From assembly GCA_019084435.1 (NCBI GenBank), contig JAHRFV010000147.1, forward strand, positions 1-8,141: a stretch of DNA of 8,141 nt, written 5' to 3'. The position numbers and the translations under genes were made by a program. Numbering within the stretch: the stretch's first letter is position 1; each line of letters opens with the position of its first letter. A model generated the notes under the pieces. The model saw nothing but the letters and a program-made list of their open reading frames with translations, ran no database searches and was not told the origin of the DNA. This DNA comes from Dethiosulfatibacter sp. Its GTDB lineage: Bacteria; Bacillota_A; Clostridia; Tissierellales; Dethiosulfatibacteraceae. This document shows, one piece after another, positions 1 through 8,141 of the stretch.

Positions 1-183
1 CAAAACAAAACATTGGCTATACAGTCATTGAAAATGACAAGATTATAAACCTTTATGAATCTGAGATAGCTATGCCCGTGCGAATTACTTATCAGTATGG
101 ATCTTATTTTCCGATAAACCGTGGTGCATACGGTAAAACAATCATGGCATTCTATAAGCCATTGGAAAAGCTAGAAGAAATTG
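1..183 (+). pseudogene. IclR-type regulator, internal fragment in inverted orientation
   Basis: Reading from base 3 on the plus strand gives the middle of an IclR effector-binding domain. It repeats the end of the minus-strand regulator fragment (…MPVRITYQYGSY) and then continues as FPINRGAYGKTIMAFYKP and LEKLEEI up to the junction at 183/184. That continuation fits the family, where a Gly/Ala-x-GKaxlA-type segment follows this point in the ligand-binding domain. It is therefore most likely the true downstream sequence of the gene at 184-578, displaced by the fold-back. Beyond the junction the plus-strand frame is the antisense of the gene and has no meaning. It is not an independent gene. 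Confidence 0.8.
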
Positions 184-289
184 TAAGATCCATACTGATA
201 AGTAATTCGCACGGGCATAGCTATCTCAGATTCATAAAGGTTTATAATCTTGTCATTTTCAATGACTGTATAGCCAATGTTTTGTTTTG
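1..289. repeat. Perfect 106-bp inverted repeat around a 77-bp spacer (fold-back junction)
   Basis: Bases 1-106 are the exact reverse complement of bases 184-289, with a 77-base spacer at 107-183. The left arm reaches the first base of the window, so the repeat may continue beyond it. Both arms encode the same stretch of an IclR-type regulator, once on each strand. The spacer continues that protein sensibly on the plus strand, whereas the minus-strand reading runs into a stop 13 bases beyond the arm. This is what a fold-back chimera made during DNA amplification, or a misassembled contig end, would look like. A true inverted duplication is possible but would have destroyed the gene. Confidence 0.93.
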
Positions 290-732: not shown

Positions 733-1485
733 TTATAGCTCATAGATGGTTTCGTGCCATTCCGGATGCAAAAAATCGGTTCCCGTTCCCTCCATTGCTT
801 TTTCAAATGATATTTTTTCCTGATTCTCATCAATTGCTTTTAAATACTTGATCCGATAATCAATCTGCTTCAGCAACTCAGTTTCATCTTGATCGGTTTC
901 TCCATGACTTGTCAATATGTAATTGCTCGCATACTGTTTAAGGTTTTCTAGAGAACTAATTTGTCGTTTGATTTTAGTCTTCCCTACCAATGGTATAACC
1001 GATTCACCATCATTCGAAAACATCAACTCATCACCTACATGCAAGTACTTGTCATTAATCAGTGTCAGCATGCTGCATTGAGCATGCCCGGGAGATCTCA
1101 TCAGCTTAATCCTAAAACTGCCGAATTGAAAAGTATAATCGTCATGAATCGCTATAGTAGGTTTATAAAAAGATTGTTTTTCCTTGTCCACATATATGTC
1201 CAAAGCTTCTTGATAGGAATCGCTGCCTATAATCTCCACCTTATCCAATGCATTTAATCCATTGATATGGTCCAGGTGAAAATGTGTGAATATGACCTTG
1301 GTAATTAAAATACCCTTCTGAGCAAGATAATCCTTAACCTCAGAGGCATGCTCCCTGAAACCTGTATCTATGATCAACGCCTGGCTTCCATCAACCAGCA
1401 CATAAAAATTGTATCCAAACTTCGTTTGTTTTCTTGGTCCGAAAATAAATCTGTAGAAATTCTTTTCCATTTCTTTGACTATCAT
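733..1485 (-). CDS. Metallo-beta-lactamase-fold hydrolase coupled to pylC
   Basis: A 250-residue MBL-fold protein with the full metal-binding set: THFHLDH (H68, H70, D72, H73), SPGHAQCS (H134), HVGDELMF (D152) and TSHG (H194). This predicts a two-metal hydrolase site of the glyoxalase II-like/lactonase-like group. No signal peptide or membrane segment is visible, so it should be cytoplasmic. The start ATG (1485-1483) overlaps the pylC stop in an ATGA arrangement, and AGGAG lies 6 bases upstream inside the pylC end, so translation is probably coupled. It is the last gene of the operon. I know of no established role for such an enzyme in pyrrolysine synthesis. Removal of a lactam, thioester or other side product is speculation. 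Fold is certain; substrate is unknown. Confidence 0.9.
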   Translation of the reverse strand: MIVKEMEKNFYRFIFGPRKQTKFGYNFYVLVDGSQALIIDTGFREHASEVKDYLAQKGILITKVIFTHFHLDHINGLNALDKVEIIGSDSYQEALDIYVDKEKQSFYKPTIAIHDDYTFQFGSFRIKLMRSPGHAQCSMLTLINDKYLHVGDELMFSNDGESVIPLVGKTKIKRQISSLENLKQYASNYILTSHGETDQDETELLKQIDYRIKYLKAIDENQEKISFEKAMEGTGTDFLHPEWHETIYEL

Positions 1486-2621
1486 ACTTTACTCCTCTCT
1501 GTATAAGTTTTCAGATATTCATGTACTTGAGATCTTTTTTGATTAACTTCATTCAAAGTTTTGCCGGTATGCACAAACGTACCTATGAGCTCGGTGTCGC
1601 CTACTTCATAGTCAGTTATTACCTCATCAGCTCTCATAAAATCCTCATAGTGAAATAATGGCTTCCTGATTGACATGTAGTGTTCTCCTACATCTTTTAT
1701 AATACCATTTTTTACCCATAAATGCTCATAAACCGTATGTTTGATATTATTAGTGTTTTGTGATAGTAATCTTCCTTCACAAAAAAGATTATATAATTCA
1801 TCAATTAAGTTGATTCCCGTCGAATGGTACACTGCTGTAGGTGTCTGGCTGGGAATCCTGGCATCTATCTCCAGAACCTTGGGTATACCATTACTTAAAA
1901 TCACTTCCACGTCCATGATGCCATTCAAATTTACTTCTTGAGCTAGTTTTATGGCTATCTTTTGTATATCCTCTCTAATTGAGTCTTCAATTTGACAAGG
2001 TGCTGTAACACGACAGCAGTCGTAGTTTTGATCTATGTGAATTTGTGTTATTTCATAGGTTTTGTAAAGCCCTGGTCTGCCTATGACCTCTATGGAATAG
2101 GAATCTCCTTCAAGATACTCCTGTATGACCATTTCTTCAGGATGAGCGTGCTTGGCTAAAATGATTTCCAGCTCTTCTCTAGTTTTAACCAGTCTAACCC
2201 CTTCACTGCCGCTTGAATGATTAGGTTTTATAATATAAGGTGGATTAGACTCAGGGTAATAAACAGGTGCTGGTATCTGACGGTTGATAAAAAGATTGTC
2301 TGATGAAATCTTAGATGAAGAGATTCGATAAGCATCAAAATCGAAGGCAATGTTTAAGACTTCTTTTTGTCCAAGCTTCTCCAAATAATCGAGAACGCCA
2401 TCATTTTCTAGAGCCGGCAATATCAAATCACTCTTTTTTAAGAAATCGATTAAGACATCACTAGGTTTCAAAATATCAATATTTAAAAATTCATCCGCCA
2501 TCAATGAAGCTAAGGCGTCTGGATTTTTATCGATTAAAACAGTCCTTATACCTGCCTTTTTGGCAAGATAACAGGCTTCAACTCCCTGGAGCTTACCTCC
2601 AATTACAACTATCGTCCTCAT
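1482..2621 (-). CDS. pylC: PylC, 3-methylornithine-lysine ligase (ATP-grasp)
   Basis: Second enzyme of pyrrolysine synthesis. It uses ATP to join (3R)-3-methyl-D-ornithine to the epsilon-amine of L-lysine. The 379-residue protein has an N-terminal nucleotide-fold domain (TIVVIGGKLQGVEA) followed by ATP-grasp signatures: IIKPNHSSGSEGV near 130-142, VIQEYLEGDSYSIEV near 165-179, GIMDVEV near 234-240 and LEIDARIPSQTPTAVYHSTG near 250-269, with acidic metal ligands in the last two. Length and motifs fit PylC. The start ATG overlaps the pylB stop by four bases (ATGA) and lacks a clear Shine-Dalgarno, so translation probably depends on pylB. Its own end overlaps the MBL gene in the same way. Identity rests on the motifs plus position between pylB and the rest of the cluster. 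Confidence 0.95.
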   Translation of the reverse strand: MRTIVVIGGKLQGVEACYLAKKAGIRTVLIDKNPDALASLMADEFLNIDILKPSDVLIDFLKKSDLILPALENDGVLDYLEKLGQKEVLNIAFDFDAYRISSSKISSDNLFINRQIPAPVYYPESNPPYIIKPNHSSGSEGVRLVKTREELEIILAKHAHPEEMVIQEYLEGDSYSIEVIGRPGLYKTYEITQIHIDQNYDCCRVTAPCQIEDSIREDIQKIAIKLAQEVNLNGIMDVEVILSNGIPKVLEIDARIPSQTPTAVYHSTGINLIDELYNLFCEGRLLSQNTNNIKHTVYEHLWVKNGIIKDVGEHYMSIRKPLFHYEDFMRADEVITDYEVGDTELIGTFVHTGKTLNEVNQKRSQVHEYLKTYTERSKV

Positions 2622-3676
2622 AATACTGCACCGGTAGCGAAATGTTCTTTTAACTCTCTTAGAACATTTCTGTACTCCTGCGTGGTAGCAACCTGCAAAC
2701 CCTTTTGAGATAGTATGGCATTTACTTCTTTGACTGTTCTACCACCTGCATCAACATCCATGGTATTTTGAGCTACTCCAACCAATCCGGTGTTAGGGGG
2801 TATGATTGATGTCACCACATTTGCTCCTGCGTCTAATCTGATGCTCAATCCCTTGATTCCTTCAATATCTAACGATGCTGGTATAAGGGCTTTGGGATGA
2901 GCCAATCTGAGTGCAGCTATAACCTTAATCTCCAACAGCTTGTCCCGAACTGGCAAATCAGCCATAGGGCTTCCTTTTTGAGGCACAAAGCTCATCACCC
3001 TGACTTGACTTGCATCAAGCCGCCTCATCTCCAAAATGGAGTCTGCAATATCATCCAAAGTTTCACCGACTCCTACCAGAATTCCCTCTTCCAGCAGCAT
3101 ACCCAGTGTTTTGGCATAAGACTTGGCGTCCATGCGGTTGTCATAGTCCTGATGAATCCTCAGTCGGTCATAGAGTGCACGGTTATGTGTCTCTTGATAA
3201 AGAGCATACCATTCCACATCCAATGCCTTAAATTGGCTAATTATGTCATTTGACACAACTCCAGGTGATATCATCACCGGTAAACCGGTACCCTTCTTTA
3301 TTCTTTTGGTTATGTCAATAACACAGGCAAAATTTTCATTATGGTACTGAGGGTCTTCCCCCATTGTAAGATCAATTAGATTGACACCTGAATCTGCAAG
3401 TGATTGTGCCAATAAGACTACCTCGTCAGGGGTTTTTCTATAGCGTTCAATATCATTAGATCGTCTATAATAACAGAAATTGCAATTGTTTTTGCACCAA
3501 GTGGAAAAATACACAAACCCATATAAGAATACTCTGTTTCCAAAATGGCGGTTTCTGATTGTATTGGCAGCCAGAAACAATTCTTCCATCTCAGAGGAAT
3601 CAGATATAGATAAAAGACTTAATATATCAGTCTTATTAAGTGTCTCCCCATTTAACGCTTTTTTGATTGTTTTCAT
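2618..3676 (-). CDS. pylB: PylB, 3-methylornithine synthase (radical SAM)
   Basis: First enzyme of pyrrolysine synthesis, a radical SAM mutase that rearranges L-lysine to (3R)-3-methyl-D-ornithine. The 352-residue length is usual for PylB. The cluster motif CKNNCNFC (C61, C65, C68) gives CX3CX2C for the [4Fe-4S] centre, followed by the aromatic pair YY. Downstream are LIDLTMGEDPQYH, GVGETLDDI and the barrel segment VRVMSFVPQKGSPM, all in keeping with the biotin synthase-like radical SAM group. AGAGGTG lies 4-5 bases before ATG 3676. It follows tRNA-Pyl by 38 bases with no terminator between, so it is probably on the same transcript, and it overlaps pylC at its 3' end. Confidence 0.96.
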   Translation of the reverse strand: MKTIKKALNGETLNKTDILSLLSISDSSEMEELFLAANTIRNRHFGNRVFLYGFVYFSTWCKNNCNFCYYRRSNDIERYRKTPDEVVLLAQSLADSGVNLIDLTMGEDPQYHNENFACVIDITKRIKKGTGLPVMISPGVVSNDIISQFKALDVEWYALYQETHNRALYDRLRIHQDYDNRMDAKSYAKTLGMLLEEGILVGVGETLDDIADSILEMRRLDASQVRVMSFVPQKGSPMADLPVRDKLLEIKVIAALRLAHPKALIPASLDIEGIKGLSIRLDAGANVVTSIIPPNTGLVGVAQNTMDVDAGGRTVKEVNAILSQKGLQVATTQEYRNVLRELKEHFATGAVL

Positions 3677-3714
3677 ATCACACCTCTTTTTACTCTAGCT
3701 GTGTACCCTGTTGA

Positions 3715-3786
3715 TGGCGAGGAGCCCGAGAGTCTCACTCGGCTACATAGAGTTAGAGTCTATGTGATCCATCCGATCCGCTCCCC
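3715..3786 (-). tRNA. pylT: tRNA-Pyl (anticodon CUA)
   Basis: Amber-suppressor tRNA for pyrrolysine, 72 nt with CCA encoded (3717-3715). On the minus strand: acceptor GGGGAGC/GCTCCTC (one G-U pair), a single base before the D arm, D stem GATC/GATC with a 5-base loop, six-base-pair anticodon stem CATAGA/TCTATG, loop CTCTAAC with anticodon CTA at 3756-3754, a 3-base variable region TAG, T stem CCGAG/CTCGG with loop TGAGACT, discriminator G. The six-pair anticodon stem, tiny D loop, single linker base and short variable region are the hallmarks of tRNA-Pyl, and the T loop lacks the usual TTC. It starts 7 bases after the pylD stop and must be cut out of the operon transcript or made from an unseen internal promoter. 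Confidence 0.98.
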
Positions 3787-3793
3787 ATATTCA

Positions 3794-4603
3794 TTAATGG
3801 CACAGCTCTCCTAGCATTGTAAGTGTTCCTATTTCCAGATAATCATGTATGAGTCTATGGGCATAAATCTCACTCATTTCGTCATCCAACGAAAGTGGTA
3901 TACCTGGTGCTGATATCCAGGCTTTATCATGTAGCATGCCTTTGTGTAGCCATTTACCTTCTGATGTGGCATCCATTACCAAATCATAGTTTTTGATTTT
4001 GTCTTTGTCTTCGAGTAATTGAACTCCTAAATCCACCGAAACATGGTTCATCAGTTCATGGTTTTTATCAAATACTACGGGAACTGCATTTTTAGTTTTG
4101 AGGTATTTTACTATTTCACAGCCCACAACACCACACCCCATAACAAGTGTCGCTTTATCTTTTAGAGTTTCAGTCACACATTCCAATGCTTCGACATACC
4201 CTCTTGCAGTGCTTATGTTGTTGTCGCTGAAGATGTTTTTACTGAAATGCCACCCAAGGTATCGGATATCATCGGCAAAGAATACCATAGTTGCATTTTT
4301 CAAACGGGATTCGTATAGTCCATCTATATCTGTTTTTTCAGTTACAAAAGCATTGAATCCTGCTTGTCTAATAATCGCTGCGACTGATTCTGAAAACCTG
4401 CTGATTACTCCAAGTCCAGATGTGATTGACACAACAGCAACCAGTTCATGAACAGCAGCTTGTTTGACAGTATATGTAGACAGATGATTTGAATGGGCTG
4501 CAAACTCCAAATAATTGAGACCTGTCAATTCTTTAAGCTTCTTTTCATTGGCTATTATTTTATTTATTAATTCGTCTATCCATTCTGTTTTGAGTCTGGT
4601 CAT
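3794..4603 (-). CDS. pylD: PylD, pyrrolysine synthase (NAD-dependent dehydrogenase)
   Basis: Last enzyme of pyrrolysine synthesis. It oxidises the PylC product, whose aldehyde then condenses to the pyrroline ring. The 269-residue protein has an N-terminal helical/mixed domain (TSGLGVISRFSESVAAI near 61-77) and a C-terminal Rossmann domain with VMGCGVVGCEIV (G156, G158, G161) for NAD binding, then VVFDKN after the second strand. Length and motifs match PylD. GGGGGA lies upstream of ATG 4603, 2 bases after the pylSn stop. The gene ends in tandem stops TAA TGA just before tRNA-Pyl. The tandem stop may keep ribosomes off the tRNA, which is inference. Confidence 0.95.
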   Translation of the reverse strand: MTRLKTEWIDELINKIIANEKKLKELTGLNYLEFAAHSNHLSTYTVKQAAVHELVAVVSITSGLGVISRFSESVAAIIRQAGFNAFVTEKTDIDGLYESRLKNATMVFFADDIRYLGWHFSKNIFSDNNISTARGYVEALECVTETLKDKATLVMGCGVVGCEIVKYLKTKNAVPVVFDKNHELMNHVSVDLGVQLLEDKDKIKNYDLVMDATSEGKWLHKGMLHDKAWISAPGIPLSLDDEMSEIYAHRLIHDYLEIGTLTMLGELCH

Positions 4604-4605
4604 TA

Positions 4606-4971
4606 TTATTCCCCCAATTTTTTCGGGTTTTGTTCGTTCAATTCAGGATTGCTGTCGATTAATTCTGTTCCGTAATGCTGCGAGAAAAATGTTTTTGAGT
4701 ATTTGTCCAATTTCCATTGTGGAACCTTACAAATCTTGCATGATTGACCGGCCCACTTGTTTCTTATCCAACGGGCTGCCCTGGATGTTTTGGAATTGTA
4801 GATTCTAAAAAACTCATCGCAATGAGTTGTGATTTCAATGTAATCGCCACGCAATTTAACCTCTTTGACCCCATGGAGAATTCCTTTCCGTGATGGCCAG
4901 AGCTTCATTTTATTGATTAAAGGATAGAGCTCAACATGTTTTCGATAATAGCGTTTTTTTTCACTTGCCAT
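4606..4971 (-). CDS. pylSn: PylSn, tRNA-binding N-terminal half of split pyrrolysyl-tRNA synthetase
   Basis: Binds the T arm and variable loop of tRNA-Pyl and helps the separate catalytic subunit PylSc. This 121-residue protein has the PylSn core: KMKLWPSRKGILHG near 21-34, a TTHCDEFF strand, NSKTSRAARWIRNKW near 59-73, then CKICKVPQWKLDKYSKTFF near 78-96. H33, C51, C78 and C81 align by eye with the zinc ligands of the archaeal PylS N-terminal domain. A charged tail of about 20 residues after the core is longer than I expect for the family. The ATG at 4971 lies 10 bases after an AAGGAG inside the end of the corrinoid gene, and the two genes overlap by 11 bases. A separate PylSn is typical of bacterial Pyl systems. 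Confidence 0.95.
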   Translation of the reverse strand: MASEKKRYYRKHVELYPLINKMKLWPSRKGILHGVKEVKLRGDYIEITTHCDEFFRIYNSKTSRAARWIRNKWAGQSCKICKVPQWKLDKYSKTFFSQHYGTELIDSNPELNEQNPKKLGE

Positions 4972-5614
4972 TTTTCATTAGCTCCTTGGCTTTTTTTATA
5001 GCATCCGATACATCGCCGCAATAAACATCTGCTCCTATCTTCTTAGCCCATCTTGCTGTGCATGGCGCTCCTCCAACCATTGTTTTATACTTTTCTCTGA
5101 TTCTACAGTCTCTTAAGGCAAATTCAAGTTTTTTCTGTTCTCCCAATGTTGTTGTCAGCAGGGCACTCGTAGCAATAATATCCACATCGTGTTCTTCCGC
5201 TTGATTAATGATCGTGGCAACAGACACATCTCTTCCTAGATCAATCACCTTAAATCCTGCCAGCTTCAAGCCGGTAGCCACAATGCTTTTTCCAATATCA
5301 TGAATATCACCTTCCACAGTTGCTATGAGAACTGTGCCAAGAGTCTCTATTTCTCTCGCATCTACCTTTTTAAAAACTCGAGCCAGAGCATTCTTCATCA
5401 ATTCACTCGAATATATCAGTTCAGGTAAGGAAATTTCTCCCTTGTCAAAAGCCTCGCCAACAATCTGATTGCCTTCTCCAAAACCATTCAGCAAAGCATC
5501 CAATGTCATTTTATCAGCTAGAATCAATACCTGGTCCGTTATTCTGAAAGCCTCTGTTTCATCTGCTTCTACTATTGCATTCTTTGCCCTCTTTTTTATA
5601 GCATCCAGATTCAT
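4961..5614 (-). CDS. Methylamine corrinoid protein (MtbC/MttC-type methyl carrier)
   Basis: Cobalamin-binding protein that accepts the methyl group from a methylamine methyltransferase and passes it on to a downstream methyltransferase. The 217 residues comprise an N-terminal helical cap domain (about 1-88) and a B12-binding Rossmann domain with EGDIHDIGK, the DxHxxG motif (D103, H105, G108; H105 is the cobalt ligand), then ATSALLTTT with S150 and VGGAP near 180-184. I start at ATG 5614, with AGGAG about 10 bases upstream. The frame extends to a TTG at 5635 that would overlap pylSc and has no ribosome binding site. The presumed partner is the dimethylamine methyltransferase encoded to the right, which would make this MtbC, but sequence alone does not separate it surely from the mono- or trimethylamine homologues. 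Its place between pylSc and pylSn is unusual. Confidence 0.9.
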   Translation of the reverse strand: MNLDAIKKRAKNAIVEADETEAFRITDQVLILADKMTLDALLNGFGEGNQIVGEAFDKGEISLPELIYSSELMKNALARVFKKVDAREIETLGTVLIATVEGDIHDIGKSIVATGLKLAGFKVIDLGRDVSVATIINQAEEHDVDIIATSALLTTTLGEQKKLEFALRDCRIREKYKTMVGGAPCTARWAKKIGADVYCGDVSDAIKKAKELMKNGK

Positions 5615-5631
5615 CTGTTCATCTCTCCTGA

Positions 5632-6474
5632 TCAAACTGTTAGTCTAGCACCATCAAAATATGTCAGGCTTCTACCTACTCGTTTAATATTGTTATAACC
5701 ATTCATCACCATGGCCAGTCTTTCTATGCCAAATCCCATTCCAATCCAGGCATCAAAAACGCCCCATCTCTCATCAAGACTATGGGGTCCGAATGAACAG
5801 GACGCCACTTCTATACCATCGACTACAATATCTAATGTCTCATTATAGACTTCTGAGCTCTCCATAATAAGTTCATAATCTTTTATTCTTAGAAATTCCA
5901 TAGCTTCTGATGCCATTTGTCTGAGAATATCCATCTGAGTTCCCTCATCAATGCCACCAAATTGTACCAGATTTAGCATTGTGAATTCATTAAGATGCTC
6001 AGCTCCTTGACTTTCTTTACGAAAGCATGATCCTACTTCAAAAATCTTTACAGGGTGTTTAACTGCCCGTTTCAGATCCCTCATCAGTTCATAAAGATTG
6101 GGGGCTAGCATAGGTCTCAAACATTTTTTCGCATCCAACCAAAACACTTGATTGAAGAGAGGGTGTTCGGGTGTGATCGTCATTTTTGACAGCATTTCTT
6201 TTGTTATGAAAGCAGGTGTCACCACCTGAGTGAATTGCTTGTTTTTTGTCAACCATTCAGATAATTGATTCTGGACTGTAACTAGTGTGACTTCATGTTT
6301 GTCATTGAGACAATTTACGATGCCTTGTCTGTTGATGTCAGCATAATATTTTTCTTTCTTACGATAAAAGGCATCTCTCTCTGTTGTCGTGTCAAAGTAT
6401 CGGTTCAGGTCGTCTTTATCTACATTTAGTTCGACAAGCCTCGTAATTTGCGTTTCGGTCATCTTTTCAGGCAT
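5632..6474 (-). CDS. pylSc: PylSc, catalytic half of split pyrrolysyl-tRNA synthetase
   Basis: Class II aminoacyl-tRNA synthetase core that activates pyrrolysine and charges tRNA-Pyl, with PylSn supplied in trans. Visible are KMTITPEHPLFNQVFWLD, CLRPMLAPNLYEL, motif 2 FRKESQGAEHLNEFTMLNL (151-169) and motif 3 GMGFGIERLAM (245-255). Pyl-pocket residues align by eye with archaeal PylS: A124, L127, Y128, N168, Y210 and W243 are kept, while the pocket cysteine is V170. I start at ATG 6474 (MPEKMTET…, 280 residues). AGGTGG sits 8 bases before this ATG, and the longer GTG frame from 6486 begins inside that ribosome binding site. The gene follows the GTPase by 24 bases and ends 17 bases before the corrinoid start. 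Confidence 0.97.
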   Translation of the reverse strand: MPEKMTETQITRLVELNVDKDDLNRYFDTTTERDAFYRKKEKYYADINRQGIVNCLNDKHEVTLVTVQNQLSEWLTKNKQFTQVVTPAFITKEMLSKMTITPEHPLFNQVFWLDAKKCLRPMLAPNLYELMRDLKRAVKHPVKIFEVGSCFRKESQGAEHLNEFTMLNLVQFGGIDEGTQMDILRQMASEAMEFLRIKDYELIMESSEVYNETLDIVVDGIEVASCSFGPHSLDERWGVFDAWIGMGFGIERLAMVMNGYNNIKRVGRSLTYFDGARLTV

Positions 6475-6480
6475 TAATCT

Positions 6481-6488
6481 CACCACCT
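6481..6488 (-). promoter_or_regulatory. Ribosome binding site fixing the pylSc start
   Basis: AGGTGGTG on the minus strand lies 6-8 bases before ATG 6474. The two GTG codons of the longer frame (6486 and 6483) fall within this site, so they are part of the ribosome binding site rather than starts. Confidence 0.7.
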
Positions 6489-6498
6489 ATTGATTTGA

Positions 6499-7416
6499 TT
6501 ATATGGAGATCTTTCCATTTAAGTATTTTCTGTTTGCTTCGGTTACAAGCGACATTAGTTTTATGCCAACTGATGATATCAGCACGATGTTACGGTAGTC
6601 TACTCTTCCTTCAAACGGTCTAACTATAAATCTATCTCTAACTGCACTTATTTCACGCAGTCCTTTTTCAGTTGTTACGAATCCTTTAATTCTAAAGGTA
6701 TGGGGTGTGACTTCTTCTAAAAAGCGATTTAATCCGGTTTCTTGCACCGAATCCATAAATGTCAATGTAATAACCATCGGTCTGTTCTCAACTGTGTTTG
6801 AGCTGCTTTTGGCCGACTGTGAAACAGGTGACAATAAATCTATCAATTCTACCAAATCAAGTCTGCAATAAGAAGTCACATACTGATAGGCAGTGGGATT
6901 GATAGACATCAAATGTTTGCTTAACTCTACAATCCGATTTTGGTCCACCAGATCACTTTTATTGATAATCAATGCATTACTGTATTCTATCTGCCTCTGA
7001 AGTGCTGGGAACACATCAAAGAGTTCAATGTGGTTTTCAGCGTCAATTATACACACCGAACCTATATAGTCTATTACCTTATCTGTCTGTCCGGATATGA
7101 CAGATAGTATCTCAGTCATGTTGGCAGGATCTGCCAATCCTGACGCTTCCACAAAAATGTAATCAATATCATATTTTGTCATGCTGACAAGGCTTTTCAG
7201 GAAGCTATCTTTAAGGCAGGCGCAAAATATTGAGCCATTTGACAGTTCAGCCATTTCAACCCCATCGCGATTTGTCAGAACAGCGTCAATATTGACTTTG
7301 CCAAATTCATTGACAATAACACCCACTCTTTTATTCTCATAATTATTTAGAAGCGCATTTAACATTGTGGTTTTTCCAGATCCAAGAAATCCGGTAAGTA
7401 GAATCAGTTTAATCAT
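6499..7416 (-). CDS. COG0523 (CobW/P47K) family GTPase with rearranged cysteine motif
   Basis: G3E-family GTPase, a group that delivers metals or helps load metallocofactors. The 305 residues carry Walker A GFLGSGKT (9-16), NEFG (36-39), EASG (90-93, switch/Walker B region) and the guanine-specificity motif NKSD (152-155). A C-terminal CobW_C-like domain spans about 205-300. The canonical NGCxCC metal motif is replaced by NGSIFCAC (60-67): only C65 keeps a canonical place and C67 is extra. There is no histidine-rich loop. I start at ATG 7416, since AAGGGG lies 5 bases upstream and the predicted transcript starts near 7443; the longer frame from 7437 has almost no leader. It is the first gene of the operon. 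A role in corrinoid or cobalt handling for methylamine methyl transfer is inferred from context only. Confidence 0.88.
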   Translation of the reverse strand: MIKLILLTGFLGSGKTTMLNALLNNYENKRVGVIVNEFGKVNIDAVLTNRDGVEMAELSNGSIFCACLKDSFLKSLVSMTKYDIDYIFVEASGLADPANMTEILSVISGQTDKVIDYIGSVCIIDAENHIELFDVFPALQRQIEYSNALIINKSDLVDQNRIVELSKHLMSINPTAYQYVTSYCRLDLVELIDLLSPVSQSAKSSSNTVENRPMVITLTFMDSVQETGLNRFLEEVTPHTFRIKGFVTTEKGLREISAVRDRFIVRPFEGRVDYRNIVLISSVGIKLMSLVTEANRKYLNGKISI

Positions 7417-7449
7417 ACAAGCCCCTTTTATCTTCATTGTTTAGTGTTA

Positions 7450-7478
7450 ATTATATCTAATGCGATACTGCATGTCCA
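7450..7478 (-). promoter_or_regulatory. Sigma-A-type promoter of the pyl operon
   Basis: On the minus strand -35 TGGACA (7478-7473, one base from consensus) is followed by a 17-base spacer and a perfect -10 TATAAT (7455-7450). Transcription should start near 7443, about 27 bases before ATG 7416 of the GTPase gene. It lies just past the terminator-like hairpin, so the pyl operon can be transcribed separately from mtbB. Confidence 0.82.
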
Positions 7479-7509
7479 GTCATCTAACGGATGTACAATA
7501 CAAAGCATC

Positions 7510-7558
7510 AAAAAGCTGACAGTAAAAATCTCGGTTCCAACACTGTCAGCTTATTTTT
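7510..7558 (-). terminator. Rho-independent terminator-like hairpin between mtbB and the pyl operon
   Basis: AAGCTGACAGT (7513-7523) and ACTGTCAGCTT (7542-7552) form an 11-base-pair perfect stem with an 18-base loop. On the minus strand the stem is followed by a run of five T (7514-7510), as expected for ending the mtbB transcript. On the plus strand TTTTT lies at 7554-7558, so the element could act both ways. The loop is rather long for a classic terminator. Confidence 0.75.
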
Positions 7559-7593: not shown

Positions 7594-7620
7594 AATATCC
7601 TTACTCCTTGCAAGGATATT
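7594..7620. repeat. Hairpin-forming inverted repeat 1
   Basis: AATATCCTT (7594-7602) and AAGGATATT (7612-7620) are perfect 9-base arms around a 9-base loop. The loop region also contains the palindrome CCTTGCAAGG (7606-7615), so two alternative pairings exist. It lies between the terminator-like hairpin and the mtbB stop. Confidence 0.65.
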
Positions 7621-7636
7621 ATCAACAGGGTTCTTG

Positions 7637-7669
7637 GGTTCAGTTGGCGTTTCATACGCCATCTGAACC
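7637..7669. repeat. Hairpin-forming inverted repeat 2
   Basis: GGTTCAG (7637-7643) pairs with CTGAACC (7663-7669). After one T-T mismatch, TGGCGT (7645-7650) pairs with ACGCCA (7656-7661), leaving the 5-base loop TTCAT. Thirteen pairs with one mismatch is unlikely to be chance. There is no T-run next to it, so it is not a plain terminator. Confidence 0.7.
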
Positions 7670-7694
7670 TTAGAAACCGTTATCCAGGGACTCT

Positions 7695-7738
7695 ACAGTG
7701 CGTATCTCCCACTAAAAAAGTGGGAGTCCTAGCACTGT
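7695..7738. repeat. Two-tier hairpin directly after the mtbB stop
   Basis: The outer stem ACAGTGC (7695-7701)/GCACTGT (7732-7738) encloses an internal loop and an inner stem CTCCCACT (7706-7713)/AGTGGGAG (7719-7726) with an AAAAA loop. The outer arm ends within the mtbB stop codon (7740-7738). It could protect the mtbB mRNA 3' end or act as a terminator. With repeats 1 and 2 it could instead be the end of a small IS200/IS605-like element lacking its transposase. I cannot decide between these from sequence alone. Confidence 0.7.
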
Positions 7739-8141
7739 TAGTCATCGGACAGACCGGCTCTTTCCTTAAATCTTTCTACTGAATTGATTTTGATGTCTAG
7801 TGCTTTCGCTATCTGAAATTTGGCTGCCATTCCTGCGTTAGCTTCTGCGCATGGCTCTACGTGAGCTAGCCCAAGGCCCATTTCTTCTCTTTTTTCAGAC
7901 ATCGTAACCACGTCACACAATTCTTCTAGGTTCACACCAAGCTTCTCCGCCACATATGCTTTTGCCTCGTTGATTTTCATCTTTTTGGCTAGCTGCAAGC
8001 GCATAACCAGATCTCCGGCTGTACGCACACCGCCCATGCTTGCGAAGATTCCATGAGTTGCTTCTGCTCCTAGTGGATCACCTACGCCTATCTACAATCC
8101 ATCTATTTTACAGATTTCTATCAATGCCTTATCTGCCCTTG
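7738..8141 (-). CDS. mtbB: Dimethylamine methyltransferase MtbB, C-terminal part, with in-frame UAG (pyrrolysine)
   Basis: Transfers a methyl group from dimethylamine to its corrinoid protein; the active-site residue is pyrrolysine. The frame is open to the window edge except for one TAG at 8092-8094. Read through as Pyl (O), it gives ADKALIEICKIDGL-O, then IGVGDPLGAEATHG, then MGGVRTAGDLV, matching the MtbB context around Pyl. About 117 residues follow the Pyl, close to what I recall for MtbB, whereas MtmB and MttB have much longer tails after theirs. The apparent start at ATG 8037 is internal, not a true start. The C-terminus ends DIKINSVERFKERAGLSDD with a TAA stop. The 5' part lies outside the window. 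Routine gene callers would split this gene at the TAG. Confidence 0.93.
8092..8094 (-). other. In-frame amber codon read as pyrrolysine
   Basis: TAG on the minus strand, in frame with both the 15 codons before it and the 117 after it. It sits between DGL and IGVGDPLG, the position of active-site pyrrolysine in MtbB proteins. The window also encodes tRNA-Pyl with a CUA anticodon and both synthetase halves, so the means to read it are present. Confidence 0.93.

What the first reader, a model, noticed from the sequence alone, without database searches (positions are those of the whole stretch)
1482..7416. Complete bacterial pyrrolysine operon with an uncommon gene order
In transcription order the operon reads GTPase, pylSc, corrinoid protein, pylSn, pylD, tRNA-Pyl, pylB, pylC, MBL hydrolase. 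Methanogens typically show pylT-S-B-C-D, and the Desulfitobacterium type keeps pylSc-B-C-D-Sn. Here the synthetase halves, pylD and pylBC are rearranged, with the tRNA in the middle. All synthesis and decoding parts are present in under 6 kb, from a single near-consensus promoter.
Basis: partly seen in the sequence, partly recalled or inferred. Interest (0 to 1): 0.75.

Follow-up and report, generated by a model that had tools for sequence, protein, structure and literature searches.

The report
Bacterial pyrrolysine operon, lineage-specific gene order
This is a complete and apparently ordinary bacterial gene set for making and inserting the rare 22nd amino acid pyrrolysine; its gene order differs from the textbook ones but is an inherited rearrangement shared by a small group of related bacteria.

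Summary
On the minus strand lie a cobW-type GTPase gene, pylSc, a corrinoid protein gene, pylSn, pylD, tRNA-Pyl(CUA), pylB, pylC and an MBL-fold hydrolase gene, spaced -11 to +38 nt, behind a terminator and promoter shared with the nearest relative; mtbB with an in-frame TAG ends upstream. Among 61 bacterial pyl clusters compared, 7 carry pylSc-corrinoid-pylSn-pylD-pylT-pylB(-pylC): the window, L001 (also with adjacent cobW and MBL) and five others. They form one supported clade, so the order most likely arose once, among clusters ordered pylSc-pylD-pylT-pylB-pylC-pylSn. Relative to those, only a corrinoid gene and pylSn moved. tRNA-Pyl after pylD is usual in this group. cobW recurs in relatives' pyl operons but also near corrinoid methyltransferase genes without pyl; the MBL gene beside pylC was seen only in the window and L001. 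By-products: a structured repeat upstream of the operon, found in 23 to 140 copies in five genomes, and a fold-back artefact at the window's left end. Single transcription and all activities are inferred.

The parts
7738..8141 (-). 3' part of mtbB, pyrrolysine-type dimethylamine methyltransferase; in-frame TAG at 8094-8092, stop TAA 7740-7738; its last codons (TCC GAT GAC TAA) are also the start of the dispersed repeat
   Evidence: Pfam Dimeth_Pyl 105 bits, NCBIfam dimeth_PyL 82 bits (partial gene, below that model's cut-off); Rfam PYLIS_2 at 8094-7995; frame open on both sides of the TAG; homologous gene in L001 with TAG at the same place
7617..7749 (-). one copy of a dispersed two-hairpin structured repeat (not part of the pyl machinery)
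7509..7551 (-). intrinsic terminator (about 12 bp stem, then T run) between mtbB and the pyl operon; coordinates approximate
   Evidence: stem in the fold, kept in L001; recognised by eye, its 16-nt loop lies outside the limits of the scan
7450..7478 (-). sigma-70-like promoter TGGACA-17-TATAAT
   Evidence: (11 of 12), conserved in L001
6499..7416 (-). CobW/COG0523-type GTPase with NGSIFCAC in place of the usual NGCxCC-type motif (usual motif recalled)
   Evidence: Pfam cobW 137 bits; PDB relative YjiA 1nij, E 2.7e-21; motif alignment
5632..6474 (-). pylSc, catalytic half of split pyrrolysyl-tRNA synthetase
   Evidence: TIGR02367 284.6 bits; PDB 3dsq and 2zni, E below 1e-78
4961..5614 (-). methyltransferase corrinoid protein (contains DIHDIG)
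   Evidence: Pfam B12-binding, B12-binding_2; TIGR02370 174.6 bits, below cut-off; PDB 7xcn trimethylamine methyltransferase corrinoid protein, E 9.7e-47
4606..4971 (-). pylSn, tRNA-binding half of split pyrrolysyl-tRNA synthetase
   Evidence: TIGR03912 117.1 bits; PDB 5ud5 and 5v6x
3794..4603 (-). pylD
   Evidence: TIGR03911 201.6 bits; PDB 4j43
3715..3786 (-). pylT, tRNA-Pyl, anticodon CUA, CCA encoded
   Evidence: ARAGORN; fold with 5-nt D-loop and one base between acceptor and D stem
2618..3676 (-). pylB, methylornithine synthase (radical SAM)
   Evidence: TIGR03910 480.9 bits; PDB 3t7v, E 2.1e-87
1482..2621 (-). pylC, 3-methylornithine-lysine ligase
   Evidence: TIGR03909 413.9 bits; PDB 4ffl, E 8.3e-67
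733..1485 (-). MBL-fold hydrolase, start overlaps pylC stop (ATGA); substrate unknown
   Evidence: Pfam Lactamase_B 57 bits; weak PDB relatives only; ortholog in the same place seen only in L001
171..677 (-). iclR-family regulator gene, cut by a fold-back at the window end; likely the next transcription unit
   Evidence: Pfam HTH_IclR; intact gene in L001:9030-9884

Best explanation
A complete bacterial pyrrolysine (Pyl) operon, most likely one polycistronic transcript starting near 7445 and running through the MBL gene. PylB, PylC and PylD make pyrrolysine from lysine; the split synthetase PylSn+PylSc charges tRNA-Pyl, which is cut out of the message between pylD and pylB; the charged tRNA reads UAG in methylamine methyltransferase messages such as the mtbB gene just upstream. 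The corrinoid protein is the methyl acceptor of such a methyltransferase, and the CobW-type GTPase is probably an accessory of the corrinoid/methyltransferase system. The gene order is a derived, vertically inherited arrangement of one clade: in an ancestor with pylSc-pylD-pylT-pylB-pylC-pylSn, a corrinoid gene and pylSn came to lie between pylSc and pylD, once. Shown here: identity of the parts, order, spacing, single-clade distribution. Inferred: transcription as one unit, tRNA excision, enzyme activities, partner of the corrinoid protein, role of CobW, the ancestral order.
For: Families over curated cut-offs and solved-structure relatives; tRNA-Pyl; in-frame TAG plus PYLIS_2 in mtbB. Spacing: cobW +24 pylSc +17 corrinoid -11 pylSn +2 pylD +7 tRNA +38 pylB -4 pylC -4 MBL. 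Concatenated tree of 78 clusters: the 7 with this order form one clade (SH-aLRT 97) and need one change. A tree of 38 of these rows with bootstraps agrees (95/92). PylSn alone (37 rows) and the inserted corrinoid protein (75 corrinoid rows) each need one change.
Against: No transcript data. The clade's deepest branch is only moderately supported (95/92); the trees use LG+G4 without a mixture model; one search warned of long branches and uneven letter make-up in some rows. In the PylSn tree the seven hold together at 94, just under the star level, and in the corrinoid tree no starred set of exactly seven was reported (starred sets of 2, 4 and 21). One member (L007) has no pylC after pylB and none was found in its genome. 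The window has no whole genome, so other pyl genes or methyltransferases in its organism are unknown.
Confidence: 0.9

Rival explanations
1. The order is unique to this organism or an assembly artefact.
For: The window ends in a fold-back inverted repeat (1-106 / 184-289), an assembly or library artefact.
Against: L001, a record of another organism, has the same order including cobW and MBL; five more clusters share the core order. The fold-back lies in iclR, outside the operon.
Confidence: 0.02
2. The same order arose several times by independent shuffling.
For: pyl order is fluid: 18 changes of order state on the 78-row tree (states that differ only by a missing gene are counted too).
Against: The seven form one clade, and PylSn and the inserted corrinoid protein each need one change.
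Confidence: 0.07
3. The run is two or more transcription units, with its own promoter or processing step before tRNA-Pyl or pylB.
For: The longest internal gap, 38 nt, follows the tRNA; tRNA excision would cut the message between pylD and pylB.
Against: No terminator-like site on the coding strand inside the run (loops over 8 nt not scanned), gaps of 38 nt or less, three overlapping gene pairs.
Confidence: 0.2
4. The CobW GTPase is a dedicated Pyl-system factor rather than part of the corrinoid methyltransferase module.
For: In 393 genomes of one order, a close CobW (E<=1e-70) is in 23 of 31 genomes with PylSn and 8 of 362 without (Fisher); in several clusters it lies between tRNA-Pyl and pylSn.
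Against: In 8 of those 23 genomes the close copy is on another contig than pylSn or more than 10 kb away; of the 8 genomes without PylSn, 5 have corrinoid-protein, RACo or MttB-type genes near it; 8 PylSn genomes lack a close copy (one of them, G606, has a partial cobW match near pylSn). The E-value line was chosen after seeing the list and kinship is not corrected for. Odds lowered from 0.15 to 0.12 on recounting the 8 of 23.
Confidence: 0.12

Closest known systems
L001, Eubacteriales bacterium MAG C8_metabat.bin.24_sub (JAUYTY010000078.1)
   Same: same order mtbB-cobW-pylSc-corrinoid-pylSn-pylD-pylT-pylB-pylC-MBL-iclR, same repeat, terminator and promoter; 81% identity over the joined Pyl proteins
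   Different: pylC ends in TAG there, TGA here
   Same: pylSc-corrinoid-pylSn-pylD-pylT-pylB order with cobW upstream
   Different: a further gene lies between cobW and pylSc in all five, a RACo-type corrinoid activator in the three scanned, L007, L009 and L174; no MBL gene beside pylC; L007 lacks pylC
pylSc-pylD-pylT-pylB-pylC-pylSn clusters (e.g. Dethiosulfatibacter aminovorans L024, L012, L014)
   Same: same pylSc, and the same pylD-T-B-C run
   Different: pylSn last, no corrinoid gene between pylSc and pylD
   Same: same genes, split synthetase
   Different: pylD after pylC, pylSn last, tRNA first; Sc-B-C-D-Sn is seen here in 7 of 53 five-gene bacterial rows

Membership tests
bacterial pyrrolysine (pyl) operon | split synthetase PylSc + PylSn | tested here: met
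   TIGR02367 and TIGR03912 over cut-off in two separate genes
bacterial pyrrolysine (pyl) operon | pylB, pylC, pylD biosynthesis genes | tested here: met
   TIGR03910, TIGR03909, TIGR03911 over cut-off
bacterial pyrrolysine (pyl) operon | tRNA-Pyl with CUA anticodon, 5-nt D-loop, one base between acceptor and D stem, U and A beside the anticodon, G1:C72 | tested here: met
   (last two features read by eye from the sequence); features as stated in PMC9499178 section 13
bacterial pyrrolysine (pyl) operon | a UAG-containing methylamine methyltransferase gene | tested here: met
   3' part of mtbB with in-frame TAG and PYLIS_2
bacterial pyrrolysine (pyl) operon | published bacterial gene order pylTScBCDSn or pylSnScBCD | tested here: not met
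   order is Sc-corrinoid-Sn-D-T-B-C; the same paper (PMC3941956) says 'generally' and that clusters can be interrupted, so order is not a defining feature
bacterial pyrrolysine (pyl) operon | pyrrolysine incorporated at UAG | not testable with these tools
   needs mass spectrometry
CobW / COG0523 metallochaperone GTPase | CobW GTPase domain | tested here: met
   PF02492 137 bits
CobW / COG0523 metallochaperone GTPase | CxCC metal-binding motif (recalled) | tested here: not met
   GSIFCAC in 22 of 24 aligned copies, GSVFCSC in 2; a two-cysteine CxC remains, so metal binding is open

The most novel reading that the evidence does not exclude
The CobW-type GTPase with its altered FCxC motif is a so-far unrecognised accessory of UAG-decoding methylamine metabolism (for example a metal or corrinoid handling chaperone for PylSn, whose fold holds zinc by recall, or for the corrinoid protein), and the pylC-coupled MBL hydrolase is a further new enzyme of this branch.
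Probability: 0.12. Interest if true: 0.5.

Novelty: new variant of a known kind. Interest (0 to 1): 0.25.

Why it matters
It shows bacterial pyl arrangements beyond the two usually cited and a series of order changes that follows the Pyl protein tree in one lineage. An Anaerovorax strain (IOR16, if the contig match is right and the strain is in culture) would let co-transcription, tRNA excision from a message and the roles of the accessory genes be tested. It does not change how pyrrolysine coding is understood.

Tried and rejected
Riboswitch or T-box upstream of the operon: the 5' intergenic folds far better than shuffles (z -9.6), but within it no Rfam family reaches its gathering score and its first about 125 nt are a dispersed repeat, so a pyl-specific regulator was rejected. 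Plasmid-borne relatives: tblastn of PylB gave 96 records, all under 60% identity; of the 20 listed, those with a named gene are other radical-SAM enzymes. Virus-borne: 29 stretches matched a pattern, none was confirmed. MBL as tRNA 3'-processing enzyme: RNase Z models score only 27 bits and CCA is encoded; rejected as unlikely. UAG reassignment shown by stop-codon avoidance: none of nine protein gene ends in the window is TAG, but in L001 3 of 16 listed genes end in TAG, pylC among them, so rejected. One search translated mtbB in a wrong frame and was not used; one search replaced it.

Limits of the order count: one search kept the best 80 of 136 relatives, chosen by likeness to PylB of this group. 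17 of the 78 are archaeal by record title; rows known only by handle were taken as bacterial because they come from the order searches. The search for tRNA-Pyl (ARAGORN) missed it in 13 of 61 bacterial rows (48 found); some of these loci are cut by contig ends.

Papers: PMC3941956 outline, Results section and legends; PMC9499178 passages and section 13; PMC6778437 and PMC10653893 passages; other papers only as search listings.

Full report
The observation. Reading the minus strand, the window holds the 3' part of mtbB, an intergenic stretch, then cobW, pylSc, a corrinoid protein gene, pylSn, pylD, tRNA-Pyl, pylB, pylC, an MBL-fold gene and a cut iclR gene. Starts judged by eye from ribosome-binding sites are 7416 (cobW), 6474 (pylSc) and 5614 (corrinoid), shorter than the mechanical frames (sequences upstream). 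All five Pyl proteins pass NCBIfam cut-offs and match solved structures of the same enzymes. The tRNA folds with a 5-nt D-loop and a single base between acceptor and D stem, as described for tRNA-Pyl (PMC9499178, section 13, read).

One operon. Gaps are 24, 17, -11, 2, 7, 38, -4 and -4 nt from cobW to MBL. No terminator-like site lies on the coding strand of the run (hairpins with loops over 8 nt are not scanned). Upstream of cobW a terminator hairpin and a TGGACA-17-TATAAT promoter are conserved in L001. Promoter-like sites as a class are not enriched in the window (24 found, 25.6 expected). Co-transcription remains inference.

Function. The mtbB gene upstream has an in-frame TAG at 8094-8092 at the start of a PYLIS_2 match, and L001's homologue has TAG at the same place. 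The pyl genes would supply pyrrolysine and its tRNA for such enzymes; this follows from established knowledge of the families. The corrinoid protein's best solved relative is a trimethylamine methyltransferase corrinoid protein (7xcn).

Gene order elsewhere. PylB homologues gave an alignment and 80 loci from species genomes (best 80 of 136). Whole-genome searches with PylS_Nterm found it in 4 of 249 genomes of the order of the nearest relative (G001) and in 31 of 393 sampled from the order of G002; 30 regions were fetched. One search typed 111 loci; without 15 duplicates 96 remained, and 78 with at least four pyl proteins entered the tree. Among the 61 bacterial rows, 53 have all five pyl proteins once: B-C-Sc-D-Sn 18, Sc-D-B-C-Sn 10, Sc-B-C-D-Sn 7, Sc-Sn-D-B-C 6, B-C-D-Sn-Sc 4, three types with 2, two with 1. 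The window is one of the six; L007, with no pylC, makes seven with Sc-corrinoid-Sn-D-T-B.

One origin. The seven form one clade with one change of state (SH-aLRT 97; bootstrap/SH-aLRT 95/92 in a 38-row tree). Branches around them carry Sc-D-T-B-C-Sn, others B-C-Sc-D-T-Sn. PylSn alone puts the seven together (support 94), and the corrinoid proteins lying between pylSc and pylSn need one change on a 75-row tree, though no starred set of exactly seven was reported there. The simplest reading is a single event that put a corrinoid gene and pylSn between pylSc and pylD; in L008, L012 and L158 a corrinoid gene stands directly before pylSc, a possible source that was not tested. PMC3941956 (Results section and legends read) gives the bacterial orders as generally pylTScBCDSn or pylSnScBCD, with interruptions. 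The order found here was not seen in the listings of six full-text searches or in the passages read from four papers; most subscription papers are not held, and figures cannot be seen.

Accessory genes. A cobW match is present in 22 of 61 bacterial rows and in several lies between tRNA-Pyl and pylSn. In the five other members of the clade besides L001 a gene of about 1.6-1.9 kb lies between cobW and pylSc; three of the five were scanned and are RACo-type corrinoid activators. Window and L001 lack it there; G001 has a 39% identical relative elsewhere. A close CobW (E<=1e-70, line chosen after seeing the list) is in 23 of 31 PylSn genomes and 8 of 362 others (Fisher p 5.6e-24, kinship not corrected). 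Against a Pyl-only role: in 8 of the 23 the copy lies on another contig than pylSn or more than 10 kb away, and in 3 of the 7 such places fetched, and in 5 of the 8 places in genomes without PylSn, corrinoid, RACo or methyltransferase genes lie near. A link to corrinoid methyl transfer in general is therefore likelier than to pyrrolysine. The altered motif GSIFCAC is in 22 of 24 copies, GSVFCSC in 2. Among the loci typed, the MBL gene beside pylC is found only in the window and L001; L004 has a weak MBL match several kb away.

Possible transfer. G001 and the genomes of L174/L175 (the nearest other clusters) came from searches of two different orders, while their Pyl proteins group at 100. Transfer of the operon between orders would explain this, but no species tree was made and a mis-binned contig is not excluded.

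Verdict. A real, complete and probably working pyl operon, with a clade-specific order and an unremarkable mid-operon tRNA. Interest is modest.

Noticed in passing
window 7749-7617 (minus strand); L088-L129: A two-hairpin structured repeat of about 125-135 nt with sharp ends (TCCGATGACTAACAG...CTGTTGAT); 10 of 38 predicted pairs have a change on both sides in at least one of 11 sequences, though the covariation term is small. A covariance model hits 129, 82, 140 and 23 places in G001, G009, G010, G250 (at most 150 candidates scored per genome) and 29 in G272, none in 9 other pyl genomes. In 25 distinct copies it stands in both orientations to neighbouring frames; at mtbB and after three other frames its TAA is the stop codon. 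No Rfam family over its gathering score. Probably a mobile or REP-like element.
   Followed up: partly
window 1-289: Perfect inverted repeat, arms 1-106 and 184-289, 77 nt apart; the iclR reading frame continues on the opposite strand after the fold, matching L001's intact iclR. A fold-back assembly or library chimera.
   Followed up: yes
L007 / genome G003: A pyl cluster of the same order without pylC; no PylC match in the genome. Either an incomplete MAG or a defective pathway.
   Followed up: partly
L001:8215-8217: pylC ends in TAG in a UAG-decoding organism, overlapping the MBL gene; read-through would extend PylC.
   Followed up: no
L003 and L010/L066: Second pylB copies: pylB+cobW+RACo apart from the full cluster in the genome of L003/L175, and two pylB-pylC loci on one contig of Sinanaerobacter.
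   Followed up: no
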